Below are positions 2,919-9,239 of a DNA stretch of 12,080 nt, piece after piece. The stretch comes from Candidatus Altarchaeum sp. Its GTDB lineage: Archaea; Altiarchaeota; Altiarchaeia; Altiarchaeales; Altiarchaeaceae. The translations under genes were made by a program, and so were the position numbers. Below the pieces are notes generated by a model, which made no database searches, was not told where the DNA came from, and worked only from the letters and a program-made list of their open reading frames with translations. Position 1 is the first letter of the stretch; each line of letters opens with the position of its first letter. The stretch spans positions 1-12,080 of the forward strand of contig JAGTWP010000041.1 in assembly GCA_018260755.1 (NCBI GenBank), written 5' to 3'.

Positions 2919-3121
2919 GTAACTACTCACAGGTTAACAAAATTTACTGAAAATTTATAAATAAATTTTCAATCTTAAAAAATATTTCAAATATTTTTTA
3001 ATACCTGCAAAACTTTCAAAAAATACAATTTTAAAATCTCAAAGATTTTAAAATACACGAACGAAGTGAGCGTAAAAATCAAAAAATTTACCTGTAATTT
3101 TTTGGGCGGGTGAGTAGTTAC
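2919..3121. repeat. Composite palindromic element (nested hairpins, about 200 bp)
   Basis: Perfect 12-bp outer arms, GTAACTACTCAC (2919-2930) and GTGAGTAGTTAC (3110-3121), enclose a smaller ACAGGT/ACCTGT pair (2929-2934, 3090-3095) and three perfect local hairpins. These have 9-bp arms with a four-base loop (2949-2970), 13-bp arms with a one-base loop (2975-3001), and 12-bp arms with a CAA loop (3028-3054). The last hairpin runs directly into a tail (3051-3075) that also occurs in the CCA-enzyme gene. No reading frame of note is present. It could be a miniature inverted-repeat element, a bulky terminator after the GH57 gene, or a structured RNA. The lipoprotein gene starts 23 bases after the right arm. 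Confidence 0.7.
3028..3078 (+). repeat. Hairpin-plus-tail repeat copy
   Basis: A perfect hairpin (ATTTTAAAATCT, CAA loop, AGATTTTAAAAT) is followed by a tail ending in CGAACGAAGTGAGCGTAA. The last part (3051-3075) is identical over 25 bases to 6467-6491 in the CCA-enzyme coding region. The whole unit is similar to the minus-strand sequence at 98-150. Confidence 0.7.
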
Positions 3122-3143: not shown

Positions 3144-3803
3144 ATGTTAAAAATGCAGGGGAAAAATTTATCTTTGGTATTTGCAGCAGGTGTCGTCGGA
3201 ATTGTTTTAATTCTCGTCTTGATTTCCGGATGTATGGAAAATGCTCAAAATAAAGAAGTAAATGATACAACTTACTATAAAAGTATAGCGAAGGATAACA
3301 TTAAGACAGAATATGAATGGAAGATTCTTGAATTAAAGGCAACTACACTCAAAGCGGCAAGCGAAAATGATGAATTAATTGAAAACGAAACCGAAGAAAT
3401 TTTGAAAAATCTTACAAAGGATAATTTATTAAACGCGGCGGATGAATATGGATTGGGCGAGGAAGAAATTTCCTACATAAAAGGCATGACTGCAGAGGAC
3501 TTTGAAAATTTCAAAAATGAAACATTGAAGCCCTACGCCACTGATGAGGCAAAGAAAAATATAATAGATACAATTAAGGAAGCCGCTGATGAATATAATT
3601 TTACAATATTGGATGTTAAATCAAAGGATGAAATAAAAAACATTGATACCTATTTTGATGCCTATTCAATTGGTGAAGGGATGAAGGAAGATGTAAAAAA
3701 AAAGATGAATAATGGAACTTATGTTGCTATTATTGAGATGGATGTTGCCACAAAATTTAATGTTGCTGAAATTTGCGATGGAAAAGGAAAGATCATTAAA
3801 TGA
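3144..3803 (+). CDS. Secreted lipoprotein of unknown function with six N-glycosylation sequons
   Basis: A 219-residue exported protein. A short basic N-terminus (K3, K7) leads into a hydrophobic stretch at about 10-28 and a lipobox LISGC, so Cys30 is the likely lipidated residue anchoring it to the outer face of the membrane. The mature part is acidic, mostly helical in appearance, and has no recognisable catalytic motif. It carries six Asn-X-Thr sequons (Asn40, 81, 89, 125, 152, 190), which fits archaeal surface glycosylation. I do not recognise the family; a substrate-binding or surface-structural role would be guesswork. Two ATGs are possible (3144 and 3153); the first has the TTTAAAATG context used by neighbours. 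One of the two ~70-bp direct repeats begins seven bases after the stop. Confidence 0.75.
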   Translation: MLKMQGKNLSLVFAAGVVGIVLILVLISGCMENAQNKEVNDTTYYKSIAKDNIKTEYEWKILELKATTLKAASENDELIENETEEILKNLTKDNLLNAADEYGLGEEEISYIKGMTAEDFENFKNETLKPYATDEAKKNIIDTIKEAADEYNFTILDVKSKDEIKNIDTYFDAYSIGEGMKEDVKKKMNNGTYVAIIEMDVATKFNVAEICDGKGKIIK

Positions 3804-3809
3804 GGAAGT

Positions 3810-3878
3810 GTTGCTGTAAATAAGTAAGTAATTTATTTTTGGTGGGCATTACTTCTTAGTCACTACCAAAATTTATTA
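3810..3878 (+). repeat. Direct repeat A bracketing the methyltransferase cassette
   Basis: These 69 bases match 5091-5160 with two substitutions and one missing base, in the same orientation. Internally there is a TTTTGGT/ACCAAAA dyad and an AAGTAA/TTACTT pair that cross each other, so they can fold as alternatives or as a pseudoknot. It lies seven bases after the lipoprotein stop and could act as a terminator. The equivalent copy B follows a gene on the opposite strand, which makes a purely terminator role less certain. Confidence 0.85.
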
Positions 3879-3926
3879 ATTCGTCAATATTTTGTGCCGG
3901 AGTCATTTTGATATATTACATAACCA
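3879..3926. other. Short spacer, nothing recognised
   Basis: Between repeat A and the stop of the minus-strand remnant frame there is only A+T-rich sequence without dyads, repeats or codon structure that I can support. Confidence 0.5.
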
Positions 3927-4214
3927 TCATTTAACATTTGAAAGAAGTTTTTTATTATAATTAATTACCGCTGGTAAATTATTTATATTTATTAGAATGT
4001 CATTTGTAATGTCTATGTAATCACGATCGTTTATGGGATTAACTAATAGTATTCTCTCATTTCTATAATCGAGTTTGACAAATAGATTATAGTCAATCTG
4101 CTGACTTTTTACACTATTGAAACAGATTAATGAATCGAATATTGGGTGTAAAATGTTGATAGATTCACTATAACATATTATTGTTCTAAATTTAACTTTT
4201 CTTGAGATAATTTT
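3927..4214 (-). pseudogene. Startless reading frame after the methyltransferase; possible restriction-endonuclease C-terminal remnant
   Basis: Minus-strand codons from 4214 to the TGA at 3927-3929 are open for 95 residues and read like genuine protein: SLICFNSVKSQQIDYNLFVK is followed by LDYRNERILLVNPINDRDYI and a NDILININNLPAVINYNKK tail. The frame contains no ATG, GTG or TTG. Its first 37 bases overlap the 3' end of the methyltransferase in the -1 frame, and a TAA at 4215-4217 closes it upstream. In type II restriction-modification loci the endonuclease gene often abuts the methyltransferase, so I infer that this is the C-terminal end of a lost partner. Alternatives are translation by -1 slippage in the A6 run of the methyltransferase's ...AATAAAAAATTA, a non-standard start, or chance. 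I do not recognise the endonuclease family. Confidence 0.5.
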
Positions 4215-5035
4215 TTATTTATAACTTTTTTATAGGACTCCATTATTTCGTATCCAACATAATTTCTTTCCAAATCTCTTGCCACCTTTAAAGTTGTTCC
4301 GGACCCTGCAAAAGGATCAAGAACAGTGTCTCCGACATAAGTAAAAAGACGAATACACCTATAAACTATTTCTTCAGGCATAATTGCAGGATGTTCTCCA
4401 AAAGCAGAATCTTTTTTATTAGGAATAGGAATATTCCATATTTGTTTCGTCCATTCTATCCATTCTTTTTCAGTTAACTTACTTTTTTCTTTTAGTTCTT
4501 CAGGCAGATTATTTAATGGCTTTCCATCCTTAACATAAACAGTTACGAACTCTATAGTATTTTGAGCATAAAAATTTCGTGGGTAGGGATAACTTCCAAA
4601 CATCAATGCTTTAGACGGATTTGTTCTGTTCCAAATATACATATCGTATAAAAATAAATTTGTTTCTCTCAAAATAGAATGTTGTATATCTGCATTAATA
4701 TCAAAAATATGCCTATTATAGTGGGTATCCATCTTACTTTTCATCATAGGCATCAAAGGAACATTAATTATTAATTTGCCATTAGGAACAAGAACTCTTT
4801 CGCATTCTTTCCAGACACATAATAGTTCCTGAATATACTTTTTGTAATCTTCAATATCTCCAATTTGTGAGTCATTCTTTTCAGAAAGCTTTTTATTTTG
4901 ATATCCGTCTTTTGAATAATCTTTAATATTAAAATATGGTGGAGAAGTTATAATTAAATGAATGGAATTATCAGAAATTTCCGACATATTCCTTGCGTCC
5001 TTATAGTAAACTTTATTCAACCAATTTTCTTTCAT
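4178..5035 (-). CDS. Beta-class DNA methyltransferase (N4-cytosine or N6-adenine type)
   Basis: A 285-residue S-adenosylmethionine-dependent enzyme that methylates an exocyclic amino group in DNA. The catalytic motif IV TSPPY (residues 30-34) precedes the AdoMet-binding motif I DPFAGSGTT (240-248); this order defines the beta class. SPPY rather than DPPY is commoner in N4-cytosine enzymes, but target base and site cannot be read from sequence. The central region (NRTNPSKALMFGSYPYPRNF, 136-155, and AFGEHPAIMPEEI, 211-223) is typical of stand-alone type II methyltransferases. Length is normal and the C-terminus looks intact. It starts in ttaaaATG. It lies between two ~70-bp direct repeats, with a possible endonuclease remnant immediately downstream, so it may now be an orphan or epigenetic methylase rather than half of an active restriction system. 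Confidence 0.9.
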   Translation of the reverse strand: MKENWLNKVYYKDARNMSEISDNSIHLIITSPPYFNIKDYSKDGYQNKKLSEKNDSQIGDIEDYKKYIQELLCVWKECERVLVPNGKLIINVPLMPMMKSKMDTHYNRHIFDINADIQHSILRETNLFLYDMYIWNRTNPSKALMFGSYPYPRNFYAQNTIEFVTVYVKDGKPLNNLPEELKEKSKLTEKEWIEWTKQIWNIPIPNKKDSAFGEHPAIMPEEIVYRCIRLFTYVGDTVLDPFAGSGTTLKVARDLERNYVGYEIMESYKKVINKKLSQEKLNLEQ

Positions 5036-5090
5036 TTTAATTTATTATTGAAGTTTTGTGTCTATATTAAGTTTTAATTGTCTATAATTG

Positions 5091-5160
5091 GTTGCGGTAA
5101 ATAAGTAATGTAATTTATTTTTGGTGAGCATTACTTCTTAGTCACTACCAAAATTTATTA
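5091..5160 (+). repeat. Direct repeat B bracketing the methyltransferase cassette
   Basis: This is the second copy of the repeat at 3810-3878, 70 bases long. AAGTAATG (5103-5110) pairs perfectly with CATTACTT (5129-5136), and TTTTGGT (5119-5125) with ACCAAAA (5147-5153). The two helices interlock, as in a pseudoknot or a switch. It lies between the methyltransferase start and the 3' end of the SecB-like gene (stop at 5171). Relative to that gene the repeat is in the reverse sense to copy A and its gene. Confidence 0.85.
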
Positions 5161-5170
5161 TAGGTTAAAT

Positions 5171-5620
5171 TTATTGAATATATCTTGTCACATCACTATT
5201 AACCTCTGTCGGTTGAACTGTTTGCTCTTTTCCCAGATGAACATGCGGAATTGGAAATGGCGGAGGAAGTTGTATCTCTCTTGAAATAACTGCGGTCTCC
5301 ATCATACAATTAGAAATTATGGAGTTATGGACAGTTTCTGCCATCTCCTGCGGAAGGTGCTTATTTTCACTTGACTCCCATTCTTTAAGTGCATTATTTG
5401 CTTCTTCTGGATTTGCTGGAACATAAATTTCTCCCTCTATTCTTATAAATCCAATATTCGGCTCATAATTACTTGCGAAAACAAATCCCACAGATAAACC
5501 GTTTTCTGCCTTCGTAAGATGTGTTAAAGTGCTTTTGCTGCTTATCTGTATTGTTTGTCCGCTTGTTCCGCTTCCGAATTTTCTTGATTCAATTGCTTTA
5601 TAACTTGCAGTTACATTCAT
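5171..5620 (-). CDS. Conserved hypothetical protein, possibly archaeal SecB-like
   Basis: A 149-residue soluble protein without membrane segments. The pattern is beta-rich in the first half (SVGFVFASNYEPNIGFIRIE at 43-62), then an acidic helix-like stretch (PEEANNALKEWE) and a C-terminal LPPPFPIPHVHL (118-129). NYEPNIG followed by a helix and a LPPPxPxP tail recalls archaeal hypothetical proteins described as SecB-like (for example MJ0357), which are thought to bind unfolded proteins. This is recollection, not a search, so the function is tentative. The last 20 residues are polar and probably disordered. The start context is accaaaATG on the minus strand. Divergently placed from the helicase fragment, it shares the repeat-rich spacer at 5621-5911. 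Repeat B begins 11 bases after its stop. Confidence 0.6.
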   Translation of the reverse strand: MNVTASYKAIESRKFGSGTSGQTIQISSKSTLTHLTKAENGLSVGFVFASNYEPNIGFIRIEGEIYVPANPEEANNALKEWESSENKHLPQEMAETVHNSIISNCMMETAVISREIQLPPPFPIPHVHLGKEQTVQPTEVNSDVTRYIQ

Positions 5621-5649
5621 TTTGGTTTTATCTTTTTGATTTATTATAT

Positions 5650-5818
5650 TACATGACTATCGGCTATCAACCGAATTAAATATTACTATTTAAATACTTG
5701 TATTTCACGACTATCGGCAATTAACCAAAGTAGATTATACCACTTACACAAATATTTTTGCACAAAATGGTAACCTTCAGTTTGGTTGCACATCTACTTT
5801 GCAGCCGATACTCATGTA
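5650..5818. repeat. Inverted and direct repeats in the divergent spacer (possible miniature element)
   Basis: Outer arms TACATGACTATCGGCT (5650-5665) and AGCCGATACTCATGTA (5803-5818) are inverted repeats with one mismatch. A perfect inner pair, CAAAGTAGAT (5726-5735) and ATCTACTTTG (5792-5801), lies within them, and AACCAAA/TTTGGTT (5723-5729, 5781-5787) gives an alternative pairing. ACTATCGGC also recurs as a direct repeat near 5656 and 5710, about 53 bases apart. The ~170-bp unit has no reading frame. It may be a miniature inverted-repeat element, a structured RNA, or paired operator sites for the flanking divergent genes. Confidence 0.6.
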
Positions 5819-5864
5819 TTATTGAATTTGATTTATTATTAATTAGAAAGGAATAACAAAAAGG

Positions 5865-5897: not shown

Positions 5898-5911
5898 ATA
5901 AACAATAAACA

Positions 5912-6220
5912 ATGATAAATTTTACCGAAATTTTGAAAATTTATAATATTGTAAGACTTTATGATTATCAGGAAAAAGCAATAGCTGAAATAGACAAAGG
6001 AAAAAATTTAATTGTTTCAACGCCCACAGCAAGCGGAAAAACCCTGCTTGCAGAATACGGAATAGTCAGGGCATTAAATAATAACGGAAAAGCCATATAT
6101 GTTGTGCCGATGCGTGCATTAGCAAGCGAGAAGTTCAGGGAATTTGAAATTTATAAAAATTTTGGATACAAAGTAGTGCTTGAAAGGGAGGATATGGAAA
6201 GTTTAGATTTGAAACACTGA
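5912..6220 (+). pseudogene. N-terminal fragment of a Hel308/Ski2-like DNA helicase
   Basis: The frame encodes 102 residues matching only the first part of a superfamily 2 helicase. LYDYQEKAIAEI (17-28) is Q-motif-like, VSTPTASGKTLLAE (35-48) is motif I/Walker A with the Lys that holds ATP, and AIYVVPMRALASEKFREF (61-78) is motif Ia. Full archaeal Hel308 proteins are around 700 residues and should continue with a DEXH motif II. Here the frame ends in a TGA at 6218-6220 after MESLDLKH, and I find no DEXH, motif III or motif VI in any frame up to 6418. The gene is therefore a truncated remnant or a recombined copy. Without motifs II-VI it cannot be a working helicase, although the short product could still be made. 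The start is preceded by the 11-bp tandem repeats. Confidence 0.8.
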
Positions 6221-6418
6221 AATACAAATACAGCCGTTTAAATTTTGATGTTTTATTCACTAAAATTCTGTGTTATTGTGTTTATTTGCTGATTTATCAG
6301 GAGGTATATTTCTGCTCGATTTTTCTTTTCGCACATTTAAATAGAAATTTCTGTAAAAACAGCAGAGATATGCTTATGTTAATAGATTATACTTGTAATT
6401 AATAAATATGTCTTAAAA
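6221..6418. other. Spacer after the helicase fragment
   Basis: No gene is supported. One frame (from 6184, ending about 6400) happens to stay open and would encode an aromatic, Cys-rich string without helicase features. It lacks an early start codon and was not accepted. The promoter for the CCA-enzyme gene is expected near its 3' end, where TTAATAGATTATACTTG (from about 6378) is the best TATA-like stretch. Confidence 0.4.
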
Positions 6419-7858
6419 ATGGATGATAAAATTTCCCAGATTTCACAATTTACGAGCGAAGCGAGTAAATACACGAACGAAGTGAGCGTAATATTAAAGG
6501 ATGTTCTGGCAAAGATAAAGCCGTCAGCTGACCTAAAAGCAGAAAAGCACGACATAGCAAAATGTCTGCTCGCAGAGATTAAAAAATTAGGTAAGCATGC
6601 GGAAATTGTCGGTTCGCTTGCCAAAGATACAGACCTTGCTTATACTGCTTATGATACCGATATAGATATTTTTATCAAATTTCCCGTCCGATTTAAGAAA
6701 GATGACTTGGGAAAGATAGTCATTGAAATAGGGGAGAAAATTTTAACCGATTGTGAGATTGACTATGCAGAACATCCTTATATTAAGGGAAAATTTAAAA
6801 ATTTTTCAATAGAACTCGTGCCGTGCTACGACTTTGGCGAAGGAATATTCGGCGACTTTAAAAATATAGCAACATCTGTTGACAGAACAATATATCACAC
6901 GAAATATGTCAAGGAAAAGATAGAAAAGATGGAAAAGATGGAAAAGATAGAAAAAACAAGCAATAAAATTTCTTTAAACGATGAAATACGACTTTTAAAG
7001 CAGTTTATGAAGGGTTGTAATGTCTACGGAGCAGAGGCAAGTGTTAAGGGATTCAGCGGTTATCTTGCCGAACTAATGTGCATTTATTCTGGTTCTTTTA
7101 TTAATGTTATTAAAGGTGCATCGAAGTGGAAATTAAACACATTCATAGATATTGAAAACCAGTGGGAAGGGCAGGGAAAAATTTTGTTTGACGAACCCCT
7201 GATTGTCATTGACCCCGTTGATAAGAACAGGAATGTTGCCTCAGCAGTAAGCGAGGAAAATATGGCTAAATTTATCTATGCGTGCAGAAAGTTTTTGTTA
7301 AGTCCGTCAATTGACTTTTTTATCAGTGCTAAAAAAAAAGAAAAGAGCACAAAAGAAGAAATTTTATCGGCTATAAAAGAAAGGGGAACAAAATTTATTG
7401 CAATAAGATATGAGCATCAGTATATAAATATAAACAATTTATATCCTCAATTAGAAAAAACACGAAAGACATTAATAAAACAAACGGAAAAATTTAAATT
7501 TTGTGTTATGAATTCAAAGTCATACACAAGTAAGGACTGCACCAAAAGCTTGATGTTATTTGAATTTGAAATTTTTGAACTGCCGAATGTTGAAATAGTT
7601 ATTGGACCTCCGATAGATACATCCCTTGCCGATCAGGAGTCATTCATAAACAAGCACGGACAGAGAAAATTAAATGGCTGGAGATGGATTGCTACACAGG
7701 AGAGGAAATTTAAAAATGCGGTTGATTGTCTGAAATTTTTACTTTCGCAAAGACATGGATTCGGAAAGGAATTTGTAAATTTAGATGGAAAAATTGAGGA
7801 AGATGAAGAAATTTTAAAAGAACCTGAAATAATAGAGATATTAAAAGAAATGTTGTAA
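6419..7858 (+). CDS. cca: CCA-adding enzyme (class I archaeal tRNA nucleotidyltransferase)
   Basis: A 479-residue enzyme that adds or repairs the CCA tail of tRNA without a nucleic-acid template. The nucleotidyltransferase signature is clear: VGSLAKDTDL (64-73) supplies the Gly-Ser helix turn, and DTDIDIF (79-85) gives metal-binding Asp81 and Asp83. SIELVPCYDF (130-139) brings the third carboxylate as Glu132, where the well-studied Archaeoglobus enzyme has Asp. AEHPYIKGK (117-125), LLKQFMKG and the later GFSGYLAELM region are typical of the archaeal class. Two local oddities: residues 11-24 (FTSEASKYTNEVSV) are encoded by a dispersed DNA repeat, and residues near 166-178 are KIEKMEKMEKIEK from four 9-bp units. 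Both lengthen surface regions, making the protein slightly longer than usual. The start is at cttaaaaATG. It converges with the aminotransferase gene across only 27 bases. Confidence 0.93.
   Translation: MDDKISQISQFTSEASKYTNEVSVILKDVLAKIKPSADLKAEKHDIAKCLLAEIKKLGKHAEIVGSLAKDTDLAYTAYDTDIDIFIKFPVRFKKDDLGKIVIEIGEKILTDCEIDYAEHPYIKGKFKNFSIELVPCYDFGEGIFGDFKNIATSVDRTIYHTKYVKEKIEKMEKMEKIEKTSNKISLNDEIRLLKQFMKGCNVYGAEASVKGFSGYLAELMCIYSGSFINVIKGASKWKLNTFIDIENQWEGQGKILFDEPLIVIDPVDKNRNVASAVSEENMAKFIYACRKFLLSPSIDFFISAKKKEKSTKEEILSAIKERGTKFIAIRYEHQYININNLYPQLEKTRKTLIKQTEKFKFCVMNSKSYTSKDCTKSLMLFEFEIFELPNVEIVIGPPIDTSLADQESFINKHGQRKLNGWRWIATQERKFKNAVDCLKFLLSQRHGFGKEFVNLDGKIEEDEEILKEPEIIEILKEML
6449..6491 (+). 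repeat. Dispersed repeat embedded in the CCA-enzyme coding sequence
   Basis: Two adjacent imperfect units, ACGAGCGAAGCGAGTAAAT and ACACGAACGAAGTGAGCGTAA, lie in frame near the 5' end of the gene. The stretch 6467-6491 is identical to the intergenic 3051-3075. The translation TSEAS/TNEVS shows the duplication at protein level as well. The GCGAAGC core is a sequence known to form unusually stable DNA mini-hairpins. Confidence 0.75.
6914..6949 (+). repeat. Four tandem 9-bp coding units
   Basis: GAAAAGATA, GAAAAGATG, GAAAAGATG and GAAAAGATA follow one another in frame and encode (E-K-I/M)-type triplets. Length change by slippage in steps of nine bases would keep the frame and alter only a charged surface helix or loop. 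Confidence 0.85.
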
Positions 7859-9052: not shown

Positions 9053-9140
9053 TTTAAATTTGATGTTTCATATATAAACAAAAGGTTATTAATTATGATA
9101 CAAAATATAAAGTTTAAAAAATTGCTACATTTAATTTATT

Positions 9141-9228
9141 ACCTTGTAATACCAAATTTATTACCTTGTAATACCAAATTTATTACCTCGTAATACCAAA
9201 TTTATTACCTTGTAATACCAAATTTTTA
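9141..9228 (+). repeat. Four tandem 22-bp iterons
   Basis: Units start at 9141, 9163, 9185 and 9207. Each contains GTAATACCAAATTT after ACCTT (ACCTC in the third). Units 1 and 2 are identical over all 22 bases, unit 3 has one substitution and unit 4 differs only at its last bases. A further half-match, TAATACCTAATTTTT, lies at about 9247-9261. The 22-bp period is about two helical turns, so a protein bound to each unit would sit on the same DNA face. The units have no unique spacers, so this is not a CRISPR array. Confidence 0.9.
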
Positions 9229-9239
9229 TATAATTTATT

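What the first reader, a model, noticed from the sequence alone, without database searches (positions are those of the whole stretch)
3810..5160. Near-identical ~70-bp direct repeats bracket the methyltransferase cassette
3810-3878 and 5091-5160 differ at two positions plus one indel. They enclose only the methyltransferase and the remnant frame (about 1.2 kb). This is what integration at, or recombination between, a repeated site would leave, and recombination between the copies would excise the cassette cleanly. Each copy also has two interlocking inverted repeats, so it could be an attachment-like site, a terminator, or a structured RNA recruited twice.
Basis: partly seen in the sequence, partly recalled or inferred. 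Interest (0 to 1): 0.62.

Follow-up and report, generated by a model that had tools for sequence, protein, structure and literature searches.

The report
Twin mini-transposon scars bracket a methyltransferase
The two near-identical 70-base repeats are shrunken copies of a family of small 'jumping' DNA pieces (IS1-type MITEs) scattered through this Altarchaeum archaeon, and they bracket a leftover DNA methyltransferase from a broken restriction system; a matching pair elsewhere in the genome carried a gene into a conserved operon, but for this pair movement is only inferred.

Summary
In detail: 3810-3878 and 5091-5160 match at 96% over 70 bp (2 mismatches, 1 indel). The repeats are neither att sites nor terminators. 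Each is a 59/60-bp internal-deletion form of a MITE with ~22-bp terminal inverted repeats. The TIR pattern has 39 hits in the own genome versus 0 for its reversed control, and many hits form convergent pairs. A same-genus genome (Ca. Altarchaeum) carries an 840-bp IS1-family element with kindred ends. The short form occurs only at these two places, sharing one internal deletion, so the pair probably arose from one local event. Between them lie a methyltransferase (88% identical to one in a complete R-M operon of G002), the last ~60 codons of its restriction gene, and the first ~10 codons of an RNA ligase. The interval varies between species: G003 has other genes there. The window pair has no target-site duplication, so how it formed stays open. 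Elsewhere in this genome two direct MITEs bracket a surface-protein gene inside the L24e-NDK operon, with an 8-bp TSD and empty sites in relatives. MITE-bracketed units therefore have moved in this lineage. The kind is known (compare TIME-COMPs); the IS1-type archaeal example seems new.

The parts
3809..3867 (+). MITE copy 1 (59 bp, internal-deletion form of the C25-type MITE); begins 6 bp after the lipoprotein stop codon
5090..5149 (+). MITE copy 2 (60 bp, same deletion form, same orientation); 57/59 identical to the matching parts of the 147-bp MITE on contig C25
3868..3878 (.). 11-bp flank AAAATTTATTA shared with the right flank of copy 2
5150..5160 (.). the same 11-bp flank; here it is the start of the segment duplicated from contig C13 (which reads AAAATTTATTG)
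3879..3907 (-). scrap of an RNA ligase gene, MTPAQNIDEL, homologous to the 5' end of the ligase at the syntenic interval of G003 (L099:11045-12184); DNA homology spans 3878-3918
3927..4113 (-). 3' remnant of a restriction gene: DNA homology 3932-4113, 86% to the last ~60 codons of L098:4493-5575
4088..4171 (.). ~84-bp dispersed repeat at the junction where the second methyltransferase and most of the restriction gene are missing; relatives on C40, C59, C48, two of them with a MITE in or beside them
4178..5035 (-). intact N6/N4 DNA methyltransferase (PF01555), TSPPY and DPFAGSGTT motifs, 88% to first methyltransferase of the G002 R-M operon
5150..5624 (.). segment duplicated from contig C13 (98.3%); contains the 149-aa ORF 5171-5620 (-); homology begins at the MITE copy 2 end
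5911..6262 (+). truncated duplicate (95.8%) of the start of the C13 DEAD-box helicase gene
3144..3803 (+). left anchor: conserved lipoprotein-like gene of no Pfam family, present in G001-G003
6419..7858 (+). right anchor: CCA tRNA nucleotidyltransferase, same order in G003

Best explanation
Shown: the two direct repeats are 59/60-bp copies of an IS1-type MITE (TIRs GGT..GTAATG / CATTAC..ACC), both derived from the C25-type MITE by the same ~88-bp internal deletion, and they bracket a degraded restriction-modification cassette at a site that differs between related species. Inferred: because this short form is found nowhere else in the held genome, one local event produced the pair and placed or trapped the cassette between the copies. 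The likeliest routes are IS1-type replicative integration of DNA carrying one copy, or homologous recombination between a cassette-borne copy and a resident one. The restriction gene and second methyltransferase were lost at some stage, leaving a probably active solitary methyltransferase. Recombination between the copies could in principle delete the cassette and leave one MITE.
For: TIR pattern: 39 hits in own genome, reversed control 0; G001-G003 have 14, 8 and 21 hits versus controls of 0, 1 and 2, while the outgroup genomes tried are at control level. Many hits are convergent pairs 112-147 bp apart. Alignment to the C25 MITE shows one shared deletion; 57/59 and 55/58 identity to C25, 56/58 to each other. 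IS1 parent: L107:456-1295 is bounded by GGTAATGCTAAACATGTAAGG-type TIRs and encodes a 234-aa transposase (NF033558, 181 bits, cut-off 100; PF03400). The short form is found only twice in the own genome. Precedent in the same genome: the C42 unit MITE-surface gene-MITE has an 8-bp TSD CTACTTTT and empty sites in G001-G003. Cassette homology to the R-M operon of G002 and the RNA ligase of G003.
Against: No TSD at either window copy or around the pair: left flank ..GAGGAAG, right flank AAAATTTA. No relative with the same flanks and a single short MITE was found, so there is no true empty site for this pair. The right-hand neighbour is itself a rearranged duplicate of C13 DNA beginning at the MITE end, so more than one event has scrambled the locus. 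No intact IS1 transposase gene was seen in the held (85% complete) genome.
Confidence: 0.6

Rival explanations
1. Two independent insertions of the same short MITE happen to lie on either side of the cassette in an insertion-prone intergenic interval; no joint movement ever took place.
For: MITEs are common in this genome; the right-flank motif AAAATTT(ATT) recurs at an unrelated MITE end on C14 (10 bp), suggesting target preference; no TSD around the pair.
Against: The short form is found only at these two places; neither copy has its own TSD; the cassette junctions coincide with the repeat ends.
Confidence: 0.22
2. The pair is a duplication formed during break repair: a staggered break in a resident ~70-bp MITE-plus-flank segment was filled in on both sides and foreign DNA was captured between the copies.
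For: The duplicated block runs 11 bp past the TIR on the same side in both copies, and RNA ligase homology stops at that block; short gene scraps in the interval suggest end-joining-like capture.
Against: The 11-bp match can be partly target preference: AAAATTTATT occurs about once per 6.8 kb here and at the C14 MITE end. No direct evidence for such repair.
Confidence: 0.1
3. The repeats are transcription terminators or structured RNA elements used by the flanking genes.
For: Each copy is palindromic and can fold (-10 to -14 kcal/mol); copy 1 lies 6 bp after a stop codon.
Against: No Rfam match up to E=1; the two copies give different folds; the family has TIR pairs, varied internal lengths, TSDs and empty sites as transposons do.
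Confidence: 0.04
4. The repeats are attachment sites of an integrase-mediated element.
For: Direct repeats at both ends of a cassette.
Against: No recombinase gene was recognised in the window, although not every frame was scanned; the repeats have IS1-type TIRs and many genomic relatives.
Confidence: 0.02
5. Short-read misassembly joined the cassette between two copies of a repeat.
For: The source is a 78-contig MAG and several MITEs lie at contig ends.
Against: The copies differ at three places, and no chimerism is obvious in the flanking sequence.
Confidence: 0.05

Closest known systems
TIME-COMPs (composite units bounded by two Tn3-derived miniature elements; PMC13367494)
   Same: Two copies of one transposase-less miniature element, in direct orientation, bracket passenger genes; the C42 unit here also has a TSD and empty sites.
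   Different: Ends are IS1-type, not Tn3-type; host is an uncultivated archaeon; the window pair has no TSD, so movement as a unit is not shown for it.
IS1-family insertion sequences
   Same: Related TIRs and 8-bp TSDs in family members; the transposase in G002/G003 meets the IS1 model cut-off.
   Different: The window copies carry no transposase and are only 59/60 bp.
Archaeal MITEs (Sulfolobus, Haloquadratum, others; review PMC10969869)
   Same: Short, non-coding, TIR-bounded, multicopy.
   Different: Altiarchaeota are not named in the list of archaeal genera read in that review; parent family here is IS1.
Solitary methyltransferases left by decayed restriction-modification systems
   Same: Intact methyltransferase with a truncated restriction gene beside it.
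   Different: Bracketed by MITEs.

Membership tests
MITE | short non-coding element with terminal inverted repeats | tested here: met
   59/60 bp, ~22-bp TIRs
MITE | multiple dispersed copies | tested here: met
   39 TIR hits vs 0 control; full-length relatives on C25, C10, C14, C57 and C43
MITE | autonomous parent with the same ends | tested here: met
   IS1-family element with kindred TIRs in same genus; own genome holds a degenerate one on C64
MITE | target-site duplication at the window copies | tested here: not met
   no match of flanks; other family members do have one: C30 AAAGTTTT; C29 7 bp, imperfect
IS1 family (of the parent element) | IS1 transposase over curated cut-off | tested here: met
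   NF033558 181 and 192 bits, cut-off 100
IS1 family (of the parent element) | 8-9 bp TSD | tested here: met
   8 bp at the C42 unit and C30 MITE and at a G003 unit, AAACATAA; not seen at the G002 IS copy
MITE-bracketed composite unit (TIME-COMP-like), window pair | two copies of one element bracket cargo | tested here: met
MITE-bracketed composite unit (TIME-COMP-like), window pair | TSD outside the pair | tested here: not met
   GAGGAAG vs AAAATTTA
MITE-bracketed composite unit (TIME-COMP-like), window pair | empty site in a relative | tested here: inconclusive
   G003 has other genes in the interval; G001 contig ends ~200 bp past the gene; G002 lacks MITE and cassette next to it
MITE-bracketed composite unit, C42 pair | TSD and empty site | tested here: met
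   CTACTTTT both sides; uninterrupted L24e-NDK in G001-G003
integrase attachment site | linked site-specific recombinase | tested here: inconclusive
   none recognised among the window ORFs scanned, but not every frame was scanned
solitary methyltransferase from R-M | intact methyltransferase, decayed restriction gene | tested here: met
   the restriction role of the decayed gene is inferred from its place in the G002 operon

The most novel reading that the evidence does not exclude
In Ca. Altarchaeum, IS1-type MITEs act as general carriers. Pairs of them, or one pair of their ends, pick up genes such as a surface protein, a TnpB or a restriction-modification fragment and insert them as units with 8-bp TSDs, so the window is a decayed instance of a MITE-driven gene-shuffling system in an archaeal lineage.
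Probability: 0.3. Interest if true: 0.6.

Novelty: new member of a known kind. Interest (0 to 1): 0.4.

Why it matters
It turns an unexplained repeat pair into a named element family with a probable parent, and links it to a well-supported case, in the same genome, of a gene carried as a MITE-bracketed unit into a ribosomal-protein operon. That gives a concrete, testable route for gene turnover (surface proteins, restriction systems) in uncultivated subsurface archaea.

Tried and rejected
Rfam scan of the window: no match up to E=1. Viral contigs: no exact match to the right end, and no relative of the methyltransferase. TSD for each window copy and for the pair: none. The idea that the shared 11-bp flank proves a 70-bp duplication was weakened because an unrelated MITE end on C14 shares 10 of these bases. 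Two literature searches for Altiarchaeum with transposase or mobile genetic elements listed no title on insertion sequences or MITEs. An RNA ligase relative beyond the scrap was not found in the own genome.

Full report
The window is the whole of contig C75 of an archaeal MAG of 1.32 Mb in 78 contigs, 85% complete. The genus is therefore taken to be Ca. Altarchaeum (inference).

Observation. The repeats 3810-3878 and 5091-5160 match at 95.7% over 70 bp with two mismatches and one gap. They are direct and enclose 1,212 bp.

What the repeats are. Searching the genome with copy 1 gave five further places matching its right half. Reading these showed, at most of them, a second, inverted copy of the same end ~100-150 bp away. 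A pattern for this end has 39 hits in the own genome and none for the reversed control. Many hits are convergent pairs 112-147 bp apart, with some longer ones. These are MITEs. Aligned to the 147-bp MITE of contig C25, both window copies lack the same ~88 bp of interior, and the retained parts match at 57/59 (copy 2) and 55/58 (copy 1). By eye, the breakpoints fall in the similar strings ACATTGCTTAT and GCATTACTTAT. The searches found no other copy with this deletion.

The parent. The ends resemble those of IS1 elements (a lead from memory), so PF03400 was searched. G002 and G003 hold IS1 transposases over the curated cut-off. In G002 the transposase ORF lies within an 840-bp unit bounded by TIRs of the same pattern. 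The own genome has IS1-like fragments on C64, one of them next to a TIR nearly identical to MITE ends. Target duplications of 8 bp occur at the C30 MITE and at a TIR-bounded unit in G003, which fits IS1 (8-9 bp, own knowledge). The TIR pattern is above control in the three same-genus genomes and at control level in the seven others tried.

The cassette. The methyltransferase is 88% identical to the first methyltransferase of an operon in G002 that also has a second methyltransferase and a 360-aa downstream gene, taken here as the restriction gene by position and by its apparent HNH-like motif (inference; no Pfam or NCBIfam match). The window keeps the first methyltransferase and 182 bp matching the end of the 360-aa gene. 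At the junction of the missing part lies an 84-bp dispersed repeat. Next to MITE copy 1, 41 bp match the start of an RNA ligase gene of G003 (alignment score 52; best of 500 shuffles 35), truncated after about 10 codons. The methyltransferase shows purifying constraint against G002 (dN 0.06, dS 0.53), though most of that divergence may predate the loss of the restriction gene.

The site. The gene 3144-3803 and the CCA nucleotidyltransferase flank the interval both here and in G003, where the interval holds other genes, including the RNA ligase. In G002 and, as far as its contig reaches, in G001, no MITE or cassette follows the 3144-3803 homologue. The right neighbour of MITE copy 2 is a 98.3% duplicate of a C13 segment that begins at the MITE end; C13 itself has no MITE there. 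This interval is a rearrangement hotspot.

A cleaner instance. On C42 two 129/130-bp direct MITEs, 127/129 identical, bracket a surface-protein-like gene between L24e and NDK. Outside the pair is a perfect 8-bp duplication, CTACTTTT. G001, G002 and G003 have S28e-L24e-NDK uninterrupted, and G001 reads ...GATTTCTACTTTTTTACC at the join. So a whole MITE-gene-MITE unit was inserted there. The inner flanks (TATATTTT / TTATATTT) also resemble each other, as expected if a circle carrying one MITE had integrated by replicative transposition, but this is AT-rich and weak.

How the window pair formed. It has no TSD at either copy or around the pair. IS copies without TSDs are often due to recombination between copies or adjacent deletions (PMC11708052). 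Both right flanks read AAAATTTATTA. This may be copied DNA or target preference, since the C14 MITE end shares 10 of these bases. A single local event is favoured because the deleted form exists only here, but integration, homologous recombination, break repair and independent insertion cannot be told apart with these data.

Comparison with known systems. Composite units bounded by miniature elements are known as TIME-COMPs for Tn3-type ends (PMC13367494), and archaeal MITEs are known (PMC10969869). The window pair works like a relic of such a unit, but it fails the TSD test and is not filed as a proven one. The element family itself is filed as IS1-type MITEs.

Noticed in passing
L049:7904-10239 (G000:C42): Two direct MITEs bracket a surface-protein-like gene inserted between L24e and NDK, with 8-bp TSD CTACTTTT and empty sites in three relatives.
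   Followed up: yes
L169:1178-2510 (G003:C109:23677-25009): A 1,333-bp unit with the same IS1-type TIRs encloses a 400-aa TnpB-like protein (named from its sequence by eye, no family scan) and is flanked by the 8-bp duplication AAACATAA: possible capture of TnpB by IS1-type ends.
   Followed up: partly
window 5647-5836: A ~190-bp element, 98-99% identical to copies on C53 and at the end of C64, with a possible inverted end ATGACTATCGGCT / AGCCGATACTCAT: likely a second MITE family.
   Followed up: partly
window 4088-4171: An ~84-bp dispersed repeat (92% to C40) at the restriction-gene deletion junction; other copies have IS1-type MITEs in or beside them.
   Followed up: partly
window 3051-3082 and 6467-6498: Two 91% matching 32-bp stretches (ACACGAACGAAGTGAGCG), one intergenic and one inside the CCA transferase gene.
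   Followed up: no
L060:8283-8572, L061:7238-7524, L058 end: MITE copies that share up to ~180 bp of flank on one side only, suggesting larger repeats or one-sided duplication with the MITE.
   Followed up: no
window 9129-9229: 22-bp tandem repeats (ACCAAATTTATTACCTTGTAAT) between the argD-like gene and the AAA/DUF4143 gene.
   Followed up: no
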